Assembly (NCBI GenBank): GCA_013415565.1
Contig: JAAEET010000008.1
Location: forward strand, 1-44,564
Reading direction: 5' to 3'
Origin: Methanomicrobiales archaeon
GTDB lineage: Archaea > Halobacteriota > Methanomicrobia > Methanomicrobiales > Methanospirillaceae
DNA: 44,564 nucleotides
The position numbers and the translations under genes are program-made. The notes beneath the pieces were generated by a model. That model did no database searches. It saw only the letters and a program-made list of their open reading frames with translations, and had not been told where the DNA came from. Of the stretch, positions 4,176 to 35,049 are shown one piece after another (position 1 is the first letter of the stretch; each line of letters opens with the position of its first letter).

Positions 4176-5182
4176 ACCTCCCCCTTGCCATCGCGGCCCT
4201 CTGCGGGATTCTTGCCGCCGCCATGATGCTCGGGGTGGCGGTGGGGGAGACCGCAATCCCGTTTTCACGGGTCGTCGCCATCATCGGGAGCACCGTACTT
4301 CCCGTCACCCAGGACTGGACCGCTGCTGAAGAAACGATCGTCCTCCTTATCCGCCTGCCACGGGTGATTCTGGCAGCCCTGGTCGGCGCTGCACTGGCCA
4401 TCTGTGGTGCTGTACTGCAGAGCCTCTTCCGGAACCCGATGGCCGATCCGTTCCTCCTGGGGATCTCCAATGGTGCTGCGCTCGGCGCATCCCTGGTGCT
4501 CGTCACCGGCCTTGCGGTCGGAGCCGGCATCCTTGGTGTCCCGCTGGCGGCCTTCACCTTCGGGCTGGTCACCATCATTCTCGTCTACGAACTTGCCCGG
4601 GTGGGGAACCGCGTGCCGGTTCCCTCCCTCCTCCTCTGCGGGATCGCCGTCGCCGCGTTCATGTCTGCGGGAACCTCGTTCCTCCTCTTTGTCTCAGGCG
4701 AGAACCTCCACCAGGTCGTCTTCTGGCTGCTGGGCGGAATCTCGGGACGGGGATGGGAGTACGTCGTTCTCCTCCTGCCGTTTGTCATCGGGGGAAGCAT
4801 CCTCTTCCTCTCCCTTGCCCGCCCGCTGAACGCCCTGATGTTCGGGGAGGAGTCAGCCCAATACCTCGGAATCGATGTCGAACGTCTGAAGAAGCTGGTG
4901 CTCGTGGCGGTATCACTGGTCACCGGGGCAGCGGTTTCGGTGAGCGGTATCATCGGCTTTGTCGGCCTGATCGTTCCCCACATGGTCCGGCTCCGGGCCG
5001 GGCCCAACCACCGCGCCCTCCTCCCGCTGTCGCTCCTGGCCGGGGCCATCCTCCTGGTCCTTGCCGATCTCGCCTCGCGGGTGATCCTCGCGCCGAACGA
5101 GCTGCCGATCGGGATCATCACCGCGCTGTGCGGCGCGCCATTCTTCGCCTACCTGCTCCGGAGGAGGTCCCGGGAGATATGA
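4160..5182 (+). CDS. btuC: FecCD/BtuC-type ABC permease
   Basis: The 340-residue product is hydrophobic throughout, with about ten membrane helices typical of FecCD/BtuC permeases. Recognisable family blocks are LLIRLPRVILAALVGAALAICGAVLQSLFRNPMADPFLLGISNGAALGA (about 61-109), the cytoplasmic coupling region GEESAQYLGID (about 230-240) and the conserved GFVGLIVPHMVRLRAG (about 272-287). It would form a homodimeric channel for the substrate delivered by the lipoprotein. The start overlaps the preceding gene by 16 bases and the stop overlaps the ATPase start as ATGA at 5179-5182, so the three are translationally coupled. Confidence 0.93.
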   Translation: MHQRLNLPLAIAALCGILAAAMMLGVAVGETAIPFSRVVAIIGSTVLPVTQDWTAAEETIVLLIRLPRVILAALVGAALAICGAVLQSLFRNPMADPFLLGISNGAALGASLVLVTGLAVGAGILGVPLAAFTFGLVTIILVYELARVGNRVPVPSLLLCGIAVAAFMSAGTSFLLFVSGENLHQVVFWLLGGISGRGWEYVVLLLPFVIGGSILFLSLARPLNALMFGEESAQYLGIDVERLKKLVLVAVSLVTGAAVSVSGIIGFVGLIVPHMVRLRAGPNHRALLPLSLLAGAILLVLADLASRVILAPNELPIGIITALCGAPFFAYLLRRRSREI

Positions 5183-6456: not shown

Positions 6457-7554
6457 TTATTCCGGAATCGGCTTCCAGCGATCCCGGAACTGTTTCTCAA
6501 CGTTTGGAAGCGTCGTGTACTCCATCTCATCGAGCGAGAGCCGGTGGGGCTCGAACGGTCCGTGAGCCCGCAGGATGTCGGCAAGCTCGTTGCACCTGTC
6601 CCTGACGCGATCGAATGCCGGGTCGTCGAACATGTCGGCGGGACCGATCAGCTTGCCGTTGCAGACCTGGAATCCGAGACAGAGGACCCGCGGGGGGCCG
6701 TCAAACCGGGTACAGTTCGCATCGGGCAGACCAACCGGCATGAAGGGTCCGTGATGGGAGCCCCGCATCCAGCCGGCCACGATGAAGGGGATGGCGAAGG
6801 GATCCAGGATCTCGCCGACCGCAGGAAGACCGCTCTGTCCCCGGACGATCATGACCGGATCGTCCTTGCCGACATACTTGCCTGCGATCAGGCTGAGGCG
6901 CTGGGTACTGGTCGAGGCCGCAACGACCCCGTCCTTTCTCCGGACGTACTTGACCACGTACCGGGAGGGTGCGCCGATGTAGGCCAGCAGGCTGTAGATC
7001 TCTTCGGGAGTCCGGAACTCGATCATCCGCTTTTCCATCACGTCATGGACTTCAAAGATGAACCCCTCGTGCATGGTCGGGTCGATGACCAGTCCCGGGG
7101 TGTTGAAGGGATCGGCGAACATCTTGTACAGGTAGAAGTTCCATGCGCCGGGCTCGGTCTTGTCGGCCATGAAGACCAGGACCGGGTCCGATCCCCGCTC
7201 TTCGAACTCCATTTCCGCCACGCCGGGGCCCATGCCCTTCACGTTCCCTGAGAAGGCCTCGGAGAGGATATCCTGGCCGGCACCGTAGAGTTTCATCTCT
7301 TTTGCCATCTTGGTGCACTCGGTAAAGACCTTCCAGGAGAGGGCATGGATCTTCTCGTCATCCTCGCCCCGTGTATGGGTCATGATGAGCTCCGTATCGT
7401 CGCCGCAATGGGTCACAAAAGAATCGATCAGGAGCTTTCCCTCCTCTTCCCTGAGCATTTTGGCCGCCTTTTCAAGAATTTTCGGATGGGTGCGGGAATG
7501 GCCCGGAAAACTCCCGATGTCGGCCTTAATCACAGAAATCGTCGTCGTGGGCAT
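6457..7554 (-). CDS. fbp: Fructose 1,6-bisphosphate aldolase/phosphatase
   Basis: At 365 residues it matches the archaeal bifunctional FBP aldolase/phosphatase (class V FBPase), which condenses triose phosphates to fructose 1,6-bisphosphate and hydrolyses it to fructose 6-phosphate, committing carbon to gluconeogenesis. Motifs include the N-terminal metal-binding DIGSFPGHS (12-20), CGDDTELIMTH (about 50-60), LYGAGQDILSEAFSGNVKGMGPG (about 89-111), DPFNTPGLVIDPTMHEGF and the AGKYVGKDDP block that carries the lysine used for Schiff-base chemistry in the family. It is transcribed towards btuD and is separated by 59 AT-rich bases from the hsp20 gene upstream, so it probably has its own promoter. 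Confidence 0.97.
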   Translation of the reverse strand: MPTTTISVIKADIGSFPGHSRTHPKILEKAAKMLREEEGKLLIDSFVTHCGDDTELIMTHTRGEDDEKIHALSWKVFTECTKMAKEMKLYGAGQDILSEAFSGNVKGMGPGVAEMEFEERGSDPVLVFMADKTEPGAWNFYLYKMFADPFNTPGLVIDPTMHEGFIFEVHDVMEKRMIEFRTPEEIYSLLAYIGAPSRYVVKYVRRKDGVVAASTSTQRLSLIAGKYVGKDDPVMIVRGQSGLPAVGEILDPFAIPFIVAGWMRGSHHGPFMPVGLPDANCTRFDGPPRVLCLGFQVCNGKLIGPADMFDDPAFDRVRDRCNELADILRAHGPFEPHRLSLDEMEYTTLPNVEKQFRDRWKPIPE

Positions 7555-7613
7555 CAGAAACCACTCACTAGTACATTACTGCAGCACAATAAAAGATATC
7601 GGGTTTTAAAAAT

Positions 7614-8033
7614 TCAGGGACTGGGGAGGGTGACCGGGGTATAGGAGACCTCCAGCACTCCGTGTTTACAGGAGATCTCAACCGTTCCCTTCTGTGCCGG
7701 GGGAACCTTTGCGCTGGCCCGGTAGAGCCGCTCGCCGTCCTTTGCCCAGATGAATACCCGGTCGTCCCGGAAGAGGACCTGGATATCGCCGGGTGCGATC
7801 CCGGGAAGTTCGGTTACGAGGGTGACCTTGTTTCCGAAGGTATGCACCTCGATCTCAGGCTCGGTCCCGTCGCCCCGGACCAGCAGGCCGGGGTTGCCGG
7901 CAGGACCGGATGGGGGAATGATGATCTGCACGCCGATAATCACCGGCCCCGCCTGGCCGGCGCCGGTCATTTCCATGATCCGCCGGATCATGTCGTCAAT
8001 ACCGTGTCCCTCGTCTGATGATGTATCACTCAT
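7614..8033 (-). CDS. hsp20: Small heat-shock protein (Hsp20/alpha-crystallin)
   Basis: This 139-residue protein has a glycine- and proline-rich N-terminal arm (1-50) and an alpha-crystallin domain (about 52-130): EIEVHTFGNKVTLVTELPGI, DIQVLFRDDRVFIWAK and the C-terminal GVLEVSYT block (the A-x-x-x-n-G-v-L element). The short C-terminal tail VTLPSP lacks the usual I-x-I anchoring motif, which may limit oligomer size. It begins 22 bases after the VAT/Cdc48 gene on the same strand, so both are probably in one stress transcript; the same pairing of cdc48 and hsp20 is known from Archaeoglobus fulgidus. Confidence 0.9.
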   Translation of the reverse strand: MSDTSSDEGHGIDDMIRRIMEMTGAGQAGPVIIGVQIIIPPSGPAGNPGLLVRGDGTEPEIEVHTFGNKVTLVTELPGIAPGDIQVLFRDDRVFIWAKDGERLYRASAKVPPAQKGTVEISCKHGVLEVSYTPVTLPSP

Positions 8034-10507: not shown

Positions 10508-11083
10508 CTATGACTCCCGGGGAGAAATCTCGACAACGCCATCTTCGGTAACAATAACATCCATGCGCACATCATGCTCGTCGGCCGGAATCCGGTCCAC
10601 CTCGAGGCAGGAGAAGGCCACGCCGATCTTCATCATCCCGGGATGATCCGAGAGGAAGCGATCATAGTACCCGGCACCGTATCCAAGACGGAATCCCCGG
10701 CGGTCAAAGGCCATCATGGGTACCACCACGAGATCGATCCCGGACGGATCGGCCGGTATCTCGCATCCGACCGGCTCGGGGACGGAGAAGGTGCTTGGAC
10801 GGAGCACTCCGGGATCGCGGAGAAACGAGAGGCGGAGCGTCCGGGTCTCCTGTTCGATGATCGGCACCACGATCCTGATACCGCGGGCAAGCAGGCGTTC
10901 GATCAGCCCGGATGTGTCCACTTCCCCGGGTTTTGAGGCGTAGACCATGACAGGATCTGCCCCGTCGATGACTCCCAGCAGGTGCCGCCTGATTGCCGCA
11001 GAATGCGAGGAGATCTCAGCAGGTGTCAGACGGCACCGTATCGCCCGGGCACGTTCCCGTGCAGCCTCTTTATCGTGGCCCAT
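10508..11083 (-). CDS. 5-formyltetrahydrofolate cyclo-ligase family protein
   Basis: The 191-residue product has the 5-FTHF cyclo-ligase (MTHFS) layout: a basic helical start (MGHDKEAARERARAIR), a central DPVMVYASKPGEVDTSGLIERLLARGIRIVVPI block, and the diagnostic C-terminal FRLGYGAGYYDRFL motif, which binds ATP in the family. These enzymes convert 5-formyl-THF to methenyl-THF; in methanogens, which use tetrahydromethanopterin, the physiological substrate is uncertain. The start at 11083 is the conserved one; an upstream extension would be unlike protein. It ends close upstream of the cdc48 promoter. Confidence 0.88.
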   Translation of the reverse strand: MGHDKEAARERARAIRCRLTPAEISSHSAAIRRHLLGVIDGADPVMVYASKPGEVDTSGLIERLLARGIRIVVPIIEQETRTLRLSFLRDPGVLRPSTFSVPEPVGCEIPADPSGIDLVVVPMMAFDRRGFRLGYGAGYYDRFLSDHPGMMKIGVAFSCLEVDRIPADEHDVRMDVIVTEDGVVEISPRES

Positions 11084-31402: not shown

Positions 31403-31681
31403 TCACTCCTTCAGTTCGAATTTTCCGGTCCGGAAACCCTTCCGCAGGTGGGCTTTGCCGCAGACCTTGCAGCGGTACCGGACGTTGATCTTCTTGGTGG
31501 GCTTGTCCCCTCCGGGGACCTTGGAGAACTTGCCCATGTTCCCGACCGTGCTCCTCCGCGCCTTCTGGCGGTCGATCCAGTGGAGACCGGTGGTCTTGCT
31601 CTTCTTCACCTTCTCCACCTCATGGGTCTGGTGATTCCTGCAGAACGGGCAGTAGGTTTTGAATTTCACTGGCATTTTCAT
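31403..31681 (-). CDS. rpl44e: 50S ribosomal protein eL44
   Basis: The 92-residue product matches eL44 (formerly L44e/L36a-like), with [20 protein letters not shown], a CX2C pair (CPFC) near residue 12 and a second pair CKVC near 75, plus the family's [12 protein letters not shown] end. It binds 23S rRNA near the E site. It is the first gene of the operon; a TATA-like CTTAAATATC lies about 55-65 bases upstream on the coding strand, at roughly 31736-31746. Confidence 0.97.
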
Positions 31682-32123
31682 GATATTTACCTCGGGTTAC
31701 CCGGTATCGAATATCAGTATTATTTGCCCGGGTTGATATTTAAGATTGTGGGATTGCCAACAATCGCTTAATTCTCTCCGGGAATTCTTTTTCACAGCGA
31801 CTGAAAAAGCAGTGATCCTGTTTCATCTCTGGCTATAAAAAGAATCGTAAGGGGATCGTCCCTCAATATAAATTCTCCGGGTTCTCTTGTGCCCGGGGAG
31901 CTTGGGCAGGCTCGTCTCCAAACCGATGGCATATCAATCAGGAGCGACACGGACCATTTCCGGCCCTTTTTGGGATTTCAGACCACAATTGCGGGTGATT
32001 GGTGATACGGTGATCAAGGAAAAGGTTGCCTGTTTTTCCGGCCGGCAGTTATATGGTCCCGGAAATGTCAGCATCGACTGTATCGATAGGCCCCATTTAT
32101 TGATTATTTCATGAACTCTTCCG

Positions 32124-32141
32124 GTTTGGAATAATCCAAAC
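32124..32141. promoter_or_regulatory. Perfect 7-bp hairpin/palindrome upstream of secreted-protein gene
   Basis: GTTTGGA, loop ATAA, TCCAAAC form an exact inverted repeat just ahead of the AT-rich stretch that may hold the promoter of the gene at 32221. Such a symmetric site next to a TATA box could be a regulator binding site; it could equally be RNA structure from an upstream transcript. Confidence 0.45.
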
Positions 32142-32194
32142 GATGAAAATTATCCATAAAAAACAATTTTGGCTCTCCTTCCGATTGAAACTAT

Positions 32195-32214
32195 CAGCAT
32201 GAAATGCTGGTGAA
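32195..32214 (+). promoter_or_regulatory. Leader hairpin overlapping the ribosome binding site
   Basis: CAGCAT (32195-32200), loop GAA, ATGCTG (32204-32209) form a perfect stem whose 3' arm ends at the first G of the GGTGA ribosome binding site (32209-32213) of the secreted-protein gene. Structure at this spot could tune translation or protect the 5' end of the messenger. Confidence 0.45.
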
Positions 32215-32220
32215 ATTTTA

Positions 32221-33018
32221 ATGAAGAAATTCGCACTCCTTGTAACAGCCCTGGTGCTTCTCATCGGGCTCGCGACCGCCGATCTCGGTATTTATCCGGT
32301 TCCCGAGACACAGGGTATCGTCACGTCCACGTCTGTCAACACAGTGGGTAATTTTGCGTCTGCAACGGATCTCTCCTGGCGGATTACCGACGATCCGCAG
32401 GGTCTGCCAGGAGTTCCTGTTCTTGAAGGAAGTATCTACGAATCAACCTATACCGAGGACTCCCAGACGCATGGCGTCGGCCTGATGCTGTACGACAAGG
32501 AACTTGATGTCGAGACCTCAGGCCAGATCAGCGGCCAGTGGAACATCGAGGCAACCAAGCAGATCGCGTTTGTCGGCATTGACGGTGCTTCCGTCGTCTC
32601 CAGCGACACCATCATGGTTGACGGTGCCGCAGAGATAGGAGTTACTGATGCGTTTTTCATCTGCCCATTCGCCAGTAGCACCCAGATCTTCCACCCGATA
32701 TTCTGCAACAGGGCAGAAGCCGGGAGCACCATTGATATGACCGTAGCCAACGTCCGGACCGCCACGACCGACCGGTTCGTGAAGCTCTCTGCCGACCACC
32801 CGGTCGAGATGAACCACGATCTCCGGGTAACTGAGCTCGTTACTGATGTTCCGTCAGTCGGTATGGCTTCTGCGTTCATTGATGTCCTGATCCAGGAAGC
32901 CATGGCTGACGAGATATTCCCTAATGAGCGCATCGAGTATACCGAAGAGACCACCGCTGACGGTGCCATCACCCTCTTCGACAAGCTCATGCACTATGAG
33001 TCCGGCATGGTCAGGTAA
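32221..33018 (+). CDS. Secreted protein of unknown function
   Basis: The 265-residue protein has a standard Sec signal peptide (MKKFALLVTALVLLIGLATA, cleavage around residue 20-21). The mature part is acidic, rich in Thr, Ser, Ala and Val, with many alternating hydrophobic stretches suggesting an all-beta surface or extracellular protein; it has only two cysteines (CPFA and FCNRA near 148-162), possibly a disulfide. There is no C-terminal anchor, PGF motif or lipobox. GGTGA lies ten bases ahead of the ATG. The gene stands isolated between core operons with AT-rich flanks and a terminator-like hairpin after its stop. I do not recognise a characterised family. Confidence 0.85.
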   Translation: MKKFALLVTALVLLIGLATADLGIYPVPETQGIVTSTSVNTVGNFASATDLSWRITDDPQGLPGVPVLEGSIYESTYTEDSQTHGVGLMLYDKELDVETSGQISGQWNIEATKQIAFVGIDGASVVSSDTIMVDGAAEIGVTDAFFICPFASSTQIFHPIFCNRAEAGSTIDMTVANVRTATTDRFVKLSADHPVEMNHDLRVTELVTDVPSVGMASAFIDVLIQEAMADEIFPNERIEYTEETTADGAITLFDKLMHYESGMVR

Positions 33019-33284
33019 GACAAAAAAGCCAGGAGGAAACTCCCGGTTCTTTTAATTATTCCCATATTTTACCAAATCCGGGTCGATCCCGTTAACCGCG
33101 GACCGGCCTTGATACGGTTTAATTGATCCCGTGGGCGTTCCTGCCTGCACACCATTCTCTTGGATAAGGTTAATCACGATCTCCAGGGCATGTTAACCGG
33201 GCAAAACCATGTGCTTATCGACGTATCCAATGAGCAAACGGATTCTTCATCCACACGAATTAAAATTTTATTTCCAATTTCCGA
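33019..33284. other. Intergenic region after secreted-protein gene
   Basis: No gene is supported in these 266 bases, which separate a plus-strand gene from the convergent GINS gene. The first 50 hold a terminator-like hairpin. The rest contains no open frame with protein-like content and ends in a strongly AT-rich stretch (about 33258-33297) next to the GINS stop. Confidence 0.5.
33035..33060 (+). terminator. Hairpin plus T-rich tract after secreted-protein gene
   Basis: CC-A-GGAG, loop GAAA, CTCC-C-GG (about 33035-33052, one A-C mismatch) is followed directly by TTCTTTTAATTATT. A stable GNRA-loop hairpin plus U-rich tail resembles a factor-independent terminator, and it lies 17 bases after the stop of the gene at 32221-33018. 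Confidence 0.6.
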
Positions 33285-33896
33285 TTAATTAATTTTCAGG
33301 AGTATATTGCGTTCACACAGGACTTCGGCATTCCGAAGGGGAAGGGTCACGATATCCTCCCGGCAGAGCTGGTAGATCCGGCCGTCGACACCCATGAACG
33401 GTTCCATGTCGGAAAGAACCCGGGAGAGCACGTAGTCCGGACCGGCCGGCTGGGCTTCCAGCACATCTGCGCACCGTTCGGCTTCAACGGCGGCTTCGGC
33501 ACGGCTCACCCCGGCTCCGGTGGCCGGGACCGGGATGAGCCGGCACCGGGAATGGGAAATCGCCAGGGTCACGGCGTCAAACATCTCCCGCTCCTCGGGA
33601 AGCATCCGCTTCAGTTCATCGCGGTCAACGTACTGCCCCTCCTCCTGGGTGCGGGCGAGGGCGAGGATCTTCTCGGACCGGAGCATGAAGAGGTCATGGA
33701 GCGTCTCCCGGATACTGCTCACCCGTTCGATCAGGATCCGTGCCCTGTCGGAGAAGGGATCCTCGCTGGCATACACCTCCTCGAGGAGCGATTCGAGGTT
33801 CTTCCCGGACGAATAGAAGAGATCCTTGGGAATGGAGAGGAGGCGGCCGGTCTCGCGTTCCGAGAGGAGGATGCTCCGGAGCTCATCGAGGTGCAT
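33285..33896 (-). CDS. GINS-family DNA replication protein (Gins51-like)
   Basis: The 203-residue protein matches archaeal GINS (Gins15/51 type): a mainly helical A-domain (about 1-130: MHLDELRSILLSERETGRLLSIPKDLFYSSGKNLESLLEEV..., REMFDAVTLAISHSR) and a small beta-rich B-domain at the C-terminus (about 150-203: YVLSRVLSDMEPFMGVDGRIYQLCREDIVTLPLRNAEVLCERNILLKI). GINS binds MCM helicase and primase at the fork. ATG 33896 is used because the upstream extension is unlike protein; one base separates it from the primase stop, so the two are cotranscribed, a common archaeal arrangement. Confidence 0.9.
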   Translation of the reverse strand: MHLDELRSILLSERETGRLLSIPKDLFYSSGKNLESLLEEVYASEDPFSDRARILIERVSSIRETLHDLFMLRSEKILALARTQEEGQYVDRDELKRMLPEEREMFDAVTLAISHSRCRLIPVPATGAGVSRAEAAVEAERCADVLEAQPAGPDYVLSRVLSDMEPFMGVDGRIYQLCREDIVTLPLRNAEVLCERNILLKIN

Positions 33897-33897
33897 A

Positions 33898-35049
33898 TCA
33901 GGTCCTCCCGGCGATCTCGGCAAGACCCCTGCAGCAGAGGAAGACGGCGAGGGCTTCGGGAACAACCGATTCACCTTTCCCGATCCGGTAATCGTTGCCC
34001 ATGAGGGGCATGGAGAGCTCCCGCTGGGAATCGATGCGGACATCCCGGGTGCCGAACACCACCGCGTCGGTCAGCGGATCGAAGGAGGAGAGCTCCCGGA
34101 TGGAAAGGGGGGTGACCCGGAACCCGCTTCCTCCGTGCAGGGAGGTCGGCATCCGGATGAGCCTCTTGATATCCGTCGTTACCGGTTCATCGGCGAGTGC
34201 AGCTTTTTCCCGGAGCAGGGAGATGAATTTTCCATCCTTCTGATCGGCTACTGCCCGGATCACTTTTCCGACCGTTGCATCCTTCAGGTTGACACCCGGG
34301 GGACTTGCCGCGAGGGCTGCCCGGAGATCACCGGTCCGCTTCTGGAATTCCTCAGCGGTCACCTTTCCCACCCCATCGAGCGCCGAGAGCTCGGCGACGG
34401 CGTCTTTCTGCTCCATCCTCTCCAGCCACAGCAGGTACTCGGTCAGTGCAGCTATATATCGCTGATGCCATCCGCGGGGCGAAGGTGATGGGTGGGAGAG
34501 CATGATCCCGGGATCGATCCCGATACCGCAGAGGTAATCGATCAGCTCCCGGCGCTCGGCACTTCCCCATCCCCGCACCGCAATCTCCCTGATGTGGATA
34601 TGGTACCCGCGGCCTCCCGAGAAGACGAGCTCGATCTCACGTTCCGCAAACCCGAGTTCTTCGGTGAGCATGGCGATCAGCTTGACGGTCTCCTCTTTCA
34701 CCCGGGAGAGCATCATGTCGTAGGGACCCCTGACGATATGGTCGGCATCGAGATCGAAAATGAGGTCTGCACCGAGCCACTCCTTCTCCGCCATGGTCGG
34801 GGCATGGGGCATGCTGTAGTAGGCGGCCGAGTAGTAGAGGTGCGCCGGGGCCATGTTCCGGATATACTCCATCAACTCATCGTTCCCGGGAAACCCGATG
34901 TGCCGCCGCATCCGGATCTCCGGGTATTCGGGATCAAAGAAGACAAAAGCCCATTCCCGCTGACCCACCGAGGGGGGAGCGGTAAGCGTACCGGTCCGGT
35001 AGTAGTCTGAAAACCGCTGCTTCACGAATTCGAGGGTCGCCGGCTTCAT
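33898..35049 (-). CDS. priS: DNA primase small (catalytic) subunit PriS
   Basis: The 383-residue protein has the archaeal/eukaryotic primase catalytic motifs: DLDAD at 99-103 (metal-binding aspartates), FSGGRGYHIHI (about 143-153) and a C-terminal SLHGGSGFRVTPLSI block. It makes RNA or DNA primers with PriL, not found in this window. An internal domain (about 205-280) is less conserved and may be specific to methanogens. It overlaps elp3 by ATGA at 35046-35049 and precedes GINS by one base. Confidence 0.96.
   Translation of the reverse strand: MKPATLEFVKQRFSDYYRTGTLTAPPSVGQREWAFVFFDPEYPEIRMRRHIGFPGNDELMEYIRNMAPAHLYYSAAYYSMPHAPTMAEKEWLGADLIFDLDADHIVRGPYDMMLSRVKEETVKLIAMLTEELGFAEREIELVFSGGRGYHIHIREIAVRGWGSAERRELIDYLCGIGIDPGIMLSHPSPSPRGWHQRYIAALTEYLLWLERMEQKDAVAELSALDGVGKVTAEEFQKRTGDLRAALAASPPGVNLKDATVGKVIRAVADQKDGKFISLLREKAALADEPVTTDIKRLIRMPTSLHGGSGFRVTPLSIRELSSFDPLTDAVVFGTRDVRIDSQRELSMPLMGNDYRIGKGESVVPEALAVFLCCRGLAEIAGRT

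What the first reader, a model, noticed from the sequence alone, without database searches (positions are those of the whole stretch)
31682..33284. Low-density island with an isolated secreted protein between core operons
A 539-base gap, one secreted protein gene (265 aa, no known family) and a 266-base gap interrupt an otherwise dense chromosome. The gene has several possible promoter and hairpin elements, its own terminator-like hairpin and a good ribosome binding site. It could encode an abundant surface protein.
Basis: partly seen in the sequence, partly recalled or inferred. Interest (0 to 1): 0.5.

Follow-up and report, generated by a model that had tools for sequence, protein, structure and literature searches.

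The report
Archaeal sheath gene with altered leader
The lone secreted-protein gene is one of at least fifteen genes in this methane-producing archaeon for the amyloid-like tube that encases its cells; it sits inside an otherwise conserved housekeeping operon and lacks the intact mRNA hairpin seen at its sister genes.

Summary
The coordinates are exact: 539 bp, a 265-aa ORF (32221-33018), 266 bp. The protein matches no Pfam, NCBIfam or PHROGs model, but it is a sheath (SH/MspA-type) protein: homologous to the proven sheath protein of Methanospirillum hungatei (hhalign E 4.7e-31), with the same cysteine pair 14 residues apart and a confident all-beta model (pLDDT 93.9). It is not alone in its family: the draft genome holds 18 matches, 15 of them full-length main-type copies. 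What is unusual is its place, antisense between GINS and rpl44e, which lie at most 238 bp apart in 48 of 50 related genomes.

New here, as far as my few searches show: SH copies of this genus, and some in other genera including M. hungatei mspA, carry a conserved hairpin before the Shine-Dalgarno. A covariance model of it finds almost only SH genes. All 14 other main-type copies of this genome have it; the window copy keeps one arm in a different hairpin that pairs its Shine-Dalgarno and start codon. I predict a functional (pairwise dN/dS 0.09-0.25) but minor or conditional sheath subunit. Expression was not tested.

The parts
32221..33018 (+). Sheath (SH/MspA-type) protein gene, 265 aa; Sec-type signal peptide about residues 1-20 (by eye); Cys148 and Cys162
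32183..32213 (+). Vestige of the SH leader element: left arm eroded (about 32183-32190), right arm TATCAGCAT kept (32192-32200), AGGAGG replaced by GGTGA (32209-32213)
   Evidence: 15.5 bits, E 0.036 in a window-only search; 3 of 7 pairs broken
32192..32212 (+). Hairpin of this copy, TATCAGCAT-GAA-ATGCTGGTG, that pairs most of the Shine-Dalgarno; a longer fold also pairs the start codon
   Evidence: (z -3.88, 0 of 200 shuffles as low)
32146..32163 (+). AT-rich stretch at about the place expected for the SH TATA box; not a good match
   Evidence: family AT peak 33-26 nt before the hairpin; placed by reading
31682..31854 (-). Promoter and leader region of rpl44e; part of a 215-bp stretch (31640-31854) 93% identical to G007; TATA-like CTTAAATAT at about 31736-31744 (by eye)
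33029..33046 (.). Terminator-like hairpin between the converging SH and GINS genes; T-run found on the minus strand
33285..33935 (-). GINS-like replication gene, upstream part of the interrupted operon; matches GINS models below their curated cut-offs; its last codons differ from those of intact relatives
31403..31681 (-). rpl44e, downstream part of the interrupted operon

Best explanation
The gene encodes a subunit of the amyloid-like proteinaceous sheath of a Methanolinea-type methanogen. The protein is exported by its signal peptide and, like M. hungatei SH, is expected to pack edge to edge into circumferential beta-rings that are cross-linked by the conserved cysteine pair. It is one of 15 main-type copies. 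The copy lies, in the opposite direction, at the GINS/rpl44e junction of a conserved replication/translation operon, so the 539 bp is now a divergent promoter region and the 266 bp a convergent terminator region. The main-type SH copies of this genus, and some SH genes of other genera including M. hungatei mspA, carry a short hairpin just before the Shine-Dalgarno, placed where the mRNA should begin; I infer that it stabilises the mRNA or keeps the ribosome site open for high expression. This copy has lost that hairpin and folds into one that covers the ribosome site, so it is most likely a weakly or conditionally expressed minor subunit. Shown here: homology, cysteine pair, predicted fold, copy number, unusual place, leader conservation and its loss in this copy. 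Inferred: export, ring assembly, how the gene got there, what the leader does, and low expression.
For: Homology to the 377-aa ORF with Cys257/Cys271 in the 3,544,738-bp genome G034, taken as M. hungatei JF-1 MspA/SH: BLASTP 1e-17, profile-profile 99.9%, E 4.7e-31, Cys148/162 aligned to Cys257/271. AlphaFold2 pLDDT 93.9 with 11 strand elements, whose order agrees with the core strands of the MspA model (mean pLDDT only 70.4). 18 profile matches in the draft genome, 15 full-length main-type. Pairwise dN/dS of the window copy 0.09-0.25 with 36 of 37 compared copies of G000 and G007, one not computable. Place. Leader element; lost in the window copy.
Against: No expression, proteomic or microscopic data for this organism. 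Pairwise dS is near or past saturation (0.85-2.63), so the dN/dS values are rough. Signal peptide judged by eye and alignment, not by SignalP. Sheet topology and ring packing were not computed; the 5-strand cap reported for Methanolinea SH proteins was not identified in the model. The 14 other copies were in the training set of the leader model and the window copy was not, so that contrast rests also on the training-free hairpin scan. Copies without the element are common elsewhere: in G034 1 strong hit against 11 SH profile matches (some are pieces of one gene), in G024 7 hits at E <= 0.002 against 29. Some other leaders also have low predicted Shine-Dalgarno openness (6 of 77 as low or lower).
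Confidence: 0.85

Rival explanations
1. A decaying SH copy: the coding sequence is still open but the gene is on its way to becoming a pseudogene after losing its leader at a new site.
For: Vestigial leader, occluded start, no clear 1:1 orthologue in G007 and a rather long branch of 0.61.
Against: Intact 265-aa frame; pairwise dN/dS 0.09-0.25; only 6 changes at positions where at least 95% of the 37 other copies agree, most of them conservative.
Confidence: 0.12
2. A special case of the best explanation: a sheath subunit that is translated only when its leader hairpin opens, for example by temperature or a ligand.
For: The altered hairpin folds better than all 200 shuffles (z -3.88) and pairs both Shine-Dalgarno and start codon.
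Against: A single sequence, no orthologous leader to test for covariation; intact leaders also fold better than most shuffles; a chance by-product of erosion is possible.
Confidence: 0.15
3. A virus-derived SH-like protein left by a provirus, like those described in viruses of sheathed archaea.
For: SH-like proteins 75-94% identical to the host's are reported in some viruses (PMC11576556, read in part).
Against: Housekeeping genes on both sides; no match at E <= 1e-5 in 50,697 phage records; none confirmed in IMG/VR, in a scan that finds close relatives only; it groups among host paralogues; no viral fold match at E <= 0.001.
Confidence: 0.03
4. An S-layer or other surface protein unrelated to the sheath.
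For: Secreted and surface-type by sequence (by eye).
Against: Homology and cysteine pair shared with the proven sheath protein; no Pfam domain at all.
Confidence: 0.02

Closest known systems
SH / MspA (Mhun_2271, WP_011449234.1), major sheath protein of Methanospirillum hungatei JF-1
   Same: Homologous over most of its length; cysteine pair 14 residues apart; signal peptide; same order of core strands in the predicted models; the M. hungatei gene carries the intact leader element.
   Different: 24% identity in the BLASTP alignment; lacks the roughly 120-residue cap insert; the window copy lacks the intact leader element.
SH proteins of Methanolinea surveyed in PMC11576556
   Same: Multicopy SH proteins without Ig-like domains; 3-31 copies per genome in the Methanomicrobiales that have them.
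   Different: The survey says Methanomicrobiales genomes contain a single SH cluster; here matches lie on 11 contigs of a draft genome, and in the single-contig G034 and G047 at many separate places. The words promoter, UTR, hairpin and upstream do not occur in its main text.
Viral SH-like proteins (PMC11576556)
   Same: Same core fold according to that paper.
   Different: No viral relative was found for this protein.

Membership tests
Archaeal sheath (SH/MspA-type) protein | Sequence homology to the proven M. hungatei sheath protein | tested here: met
Archaeal sheath (SH/MspA-type) protein | Signal peptide for export | tested here: met
   By eye: MKK + hydrophobic stretch + ATA/D, aligned with the N-terminus of MspA, whose first 23 aa are a published signal peptide; SignalP not run
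Archaeal sheath (SH/MspA-type) protein | Core of two six-stranded antiparallel beta-sheets | tested here: inconclusive
   Confident all-beta model with 11 strand elements in the order seen in MspA; sheet topology not inspected
Archaeal sheath (SH/MspA-type) protein | Two cysteines placed for links between rings | tested here: met
   Cys148/Cys162, 14 apart, aligned with Cys257/Cys271; that they form bonds was not tested
Archaeal sheath (SH/MspA-type) protein | 150-350 aa without Ig-like domains | tested here: met
   265 aa, no Pfam domain
Archaeal sheath (SH/MspA-type) protein | Frequently several copies per genome | tested here: met
   18 profile matches at E <= 1e-5 in the draft genome
Archaeal sheath (SH/MspA-type) protein | Assembles into amyloid-like rings of a sheath | not testable with these tools
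   needs electron microscopy or proteomics
SH leader element (described here) | 7-bp hairpin followed by AGGAGG near the expected 5' end of the mRNA | tested here: not met
   Window copy: 3 of 7 pairs broken, 15.5 bits, not reported at E <= 1 in the genome search
Known Rfam family | Match at the gathering score | tested here: not met
   No match in the window or in four loci that hold SH genes with intact leaders

The most novel reading that the evidence does not exclude
Sheathed Methanomicrobiales share a dedicated mRNA-end hairpin for sheath genes, conserved from Methanolinea-type genomes to M. hungatei mspA although the proteins share only about a quarter of their residues. It is found almost only before SH genes and marks the copies meant for high expression. 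The window gene is a copy that moved into a housekeeping operon and traded this element for a hairpin that shuts its ribosome site, becoming a low-expression or conditional subunit.
Probability: 0.5. Interest if true: 0.65.

Novelty: new member of a known kind. Interest (0 to 1): 0.48.

Why it matters
How sheathed archaea make enough of a protein needed at about 160,000 copies per micrometre of sheath (PMC10593813, passages seen), and which of their many SH genes build the sheath, is open. A leader hairpin found almost only before SH genes, and in M. hungatei strongly only before its main sheath gene, is a directly testable marker for the expressed copies and a candidate control element. The window also shows that an SH copy can sit alone inside a housekeeping operon rather than in a cluster.

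Tried and rejected
Pfam, NCBIfam and PHROGs scans of the protein: nothing; the Pfam scan of 119 family members gave only scattered weak hits in at most 6 members each, best Imm10 in 5 members at E 1.6e-4. PDB by sequence: best E 0.54, an antibody chain; by fold, one match below E 1e-3 (perforin-2, TM 0.09), the best rows being pore-forming ring proteins with TM-scores of 0.15 or less, judged meaningless; viral fold library, none at E <= 0.001. A phage or provirus origin was considered and disfavoured. I asked whether the leader palindrome is a DNA operator rather than an RNA hairpin: G-U cells outnumber A-C cells 30 to 10, but only 18 to 10 after thinning to 37 rows, mild support for RNA and not decisive. 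Leader elements as markers of other sheath or plug genes: the weak matches looked at were not before SH genes and looked like chance, so no non-SH member was found. A target-site duplication at the insertion was left open: both sides hold a similar stretch of about 13 bp, but this is also the GINS tail and rpl44e promoter. Whether the operon split once or several times in the genus is unresolved, because G001 and G003 are intact while G008, G010 and G011 have the two genes on different contigs and G004 has no rpl44e match.

Full report
Observation. The geometry is exact. The SH gene diverges from rpl44e and converges on GINS. The surrounding genes are elp3-like, priS, GINS-like, rpl44e, aIF2-alpha and PAC2; the GINS models match below their curated cut-offs. 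Of 61 genomes examined in each have matches to both the GINS-like protein and L44e and 50 have them on one contig; by my hand count 48 of these 50 have gaps of 238 bp or less. The exceptions are this genome (1606 bp) and G007 (2247 bp, holding an antisense response-regulator/PAS gene and a run of N). The 173 bp upstream of rpl44e belong to a 215-bp stretch that is 93% identical between the two, so the split and the rpl44e upstream region are shared while the inserts differ. In the intact relatives read (G001, G003, G018, G019) the rpl44e TATA-like box overlaps the last GINS codons (by reading).

Identity. The protein has no Pfam, NCBIfam or PHROGs match. Searching 101 genomes gave matches in 40. 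One genome, G034, is a single contig of 3,544,738 bp (the length I recall for M. hungatei JF-1) with a 377-aa, 40.5-kDa ORF with cysteines 257 and 271. PMC6242892 (passages seen) gives 377 aa, 40.6 kDa and C271 for MspA; PMC10593813 (passages seen) names Cys257; PMC11641113 (passages seen) calls the sheath protein Mhun_2271. Homology to that ORF. The related genome G007, of the same genus, has contig lengths of Methanolinea sp. UBA277, so the source is a Methanolinea-type archaeon. PMC11576556 (three of six parts and passages seen) reports SH proteins in all Methanolinea and Methanospirillum surveyed and none in Methanoregula.

Fold. AlphaFold2 with 119 family members: pLDDT 93.9, pTM 0.86, 11 strand elements. 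The MspA model from 18 sequences is weaker (70.4), but its core strand elements correspond in order, with an insert of about 120 residues where the window protein has about 14. Cys148 lies in the stretch before the long strand that begins near Cys162.

Family in this genome. 19 single-sequence matches and 18 profile matches, some partial, on 11 contigs; 15 full-length main-type copies on 9 contigs. In single-contig G034 and G047 the copies are also dispersed, unlike the 'single cluster' statement in PMC11576556. In the tree of 89 proteins seven copies of this genome pair with a G007 copy, so much of the family is older than that split; the window copy has no clear partner. Pairwise dN/dS of the window copy is 0.09-0.25 with 36 of 37 compared copies, one not computable.

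Leader element. Upstream of many SH genes lies TTGATGCTGAGAGTATCAGCAT-(about 6-10 nt)-AGGAGG. Of the SH genes at hand, start sites could be placed and a leader of at least 60 nt read for 103; others were skipped. From these 103 I used 74 distinct ones with the window left out; 9 without a convincing element were dropped by name, and loci from other genera entered only if listed by name, so the set is chosen for the element. By genome, 14 of 16 leaders of G000, 14 of 16 of G003 and 23 of 25 of G007 are in it. In this alignment 93.9% of cells pair against 89.8% in shuffles and 23-41% in slid versions; 24 cells changed on both sides against 6.4; covariation score 0.220 against 0.138, these three reached by 0 of 500 shuffles; but the number of pairs with a double change (3) is not above shuffles (294 of 500). 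An AT-rich stretch peaks 33-26 nt before the stem and a TG step lies at its edge, so the mRNA should begin at the hairpin; this is inferred. Model R1 hits 9 of 9 sheathed genomes and, 13 of 13 genomes with SH matches (11 of them not used in training) and 1 of 15 without (that one at E 0.0064). Of 294 genomes drawn from the phylum it hits 14 at E <= 0.001: 12 of the family and 2 others at about 6e-4. Of the 62 hit loci that I held, 56 have an SH start adjoining, 2 end at a contig edge (one visibly an SH start) and 4 are weak matches (E 0.0048-0.178) taken as chance. Eight places were looked at, three of them again among those weak ones: one is a cut-off SH gene and seven showed no SH gene. In M. 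hungatei the only strong hit is before mspA; PMC11576556 reports that gene as the most transcribed SH gene, with Mhun_1947 next at 100:13 and the rest very low. Against a general rule: most SH matches of G034 and G024 lack the element.

The window copy. All 14 other main-type copies of this genome are hit at E <= 0.06 (they were in the training set); the window copy scores 15.5 bits, E 0.036 in a search of the window alone, with 3 of 7 pairs broken. Its right arm pairs instead with a downstream ATGCTGGTG that holds most of the Shine-Dalgarno. Predicted openness of its Shine-Dalgarno is 0.21 against a mean of 0.57 over 77 leaders (6 as low or lower) and of its start codon 0.10 against 0.73 (2 as low or lower).

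Literature on the leader. Searches for Methanospirillum with 'untranslated region' (3 papers, listing only), Methanolinea with sheath (7, of which I read parts of two, the rest listing only), sheath with mspA and expression (7, one of them read in passages, the rest listing only), a general one on archaeal stem-loops (12 of 176 listed), and word finds in PMC11576556 and PMC11641113 showed no description of it. The library lacks most subscription papers and all preprints, so it may be described elsewhere.

Judgement. A new member of a known protein family, in an unusual place, with a changed leader. The protein reading is firm; the expression reading is a prediction. On checking I corrected counts (9 and 11 contigs, 173 bp of shared upstream region, which SH genes carry the element); none of these required a change of odds.

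Noticed in passing
L061:4151-4960 and 7469-7891; L063:288-1235 and 4762-5157; L071:320-1198 and 10665-11066; L078:1274-1657 and 1822-2640: In four genomes a divergent SH-like protein with adjacent cysteines and a half-length SH protein (C-terminal half only) lie on the same stretch, in three of them beside an SH array; G034 and G047 show a similar pair of matches. They could be special sheath or plug parts, for example ring ends.
   Followed up: no
L179:3993-6233: In the near relative G007 the same GINS/rpl44e junction holds a different insert, an antisense response-regulator/PAS gene, beside a run of N.
   Followed up: partly
L185-L191: In G008, G010 and G011 GINS and rpl44e lie on different contigs, and in G004 GINS has another gene downstream; the junction may be a frequent break point in this genus.
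   Followed up: partly
G000 contigs C25, C34, C7; G007 C11, C27; L240, L243: Several SH genes or their leaders lie at or near contig ends, so drafts probably undercount copies.
   Followed up: no
L082:5324-6152: One SH gene of G039 is read as two overlapping fragments in different frames, a likely broken copy or sequencing error.
   Followed up: no
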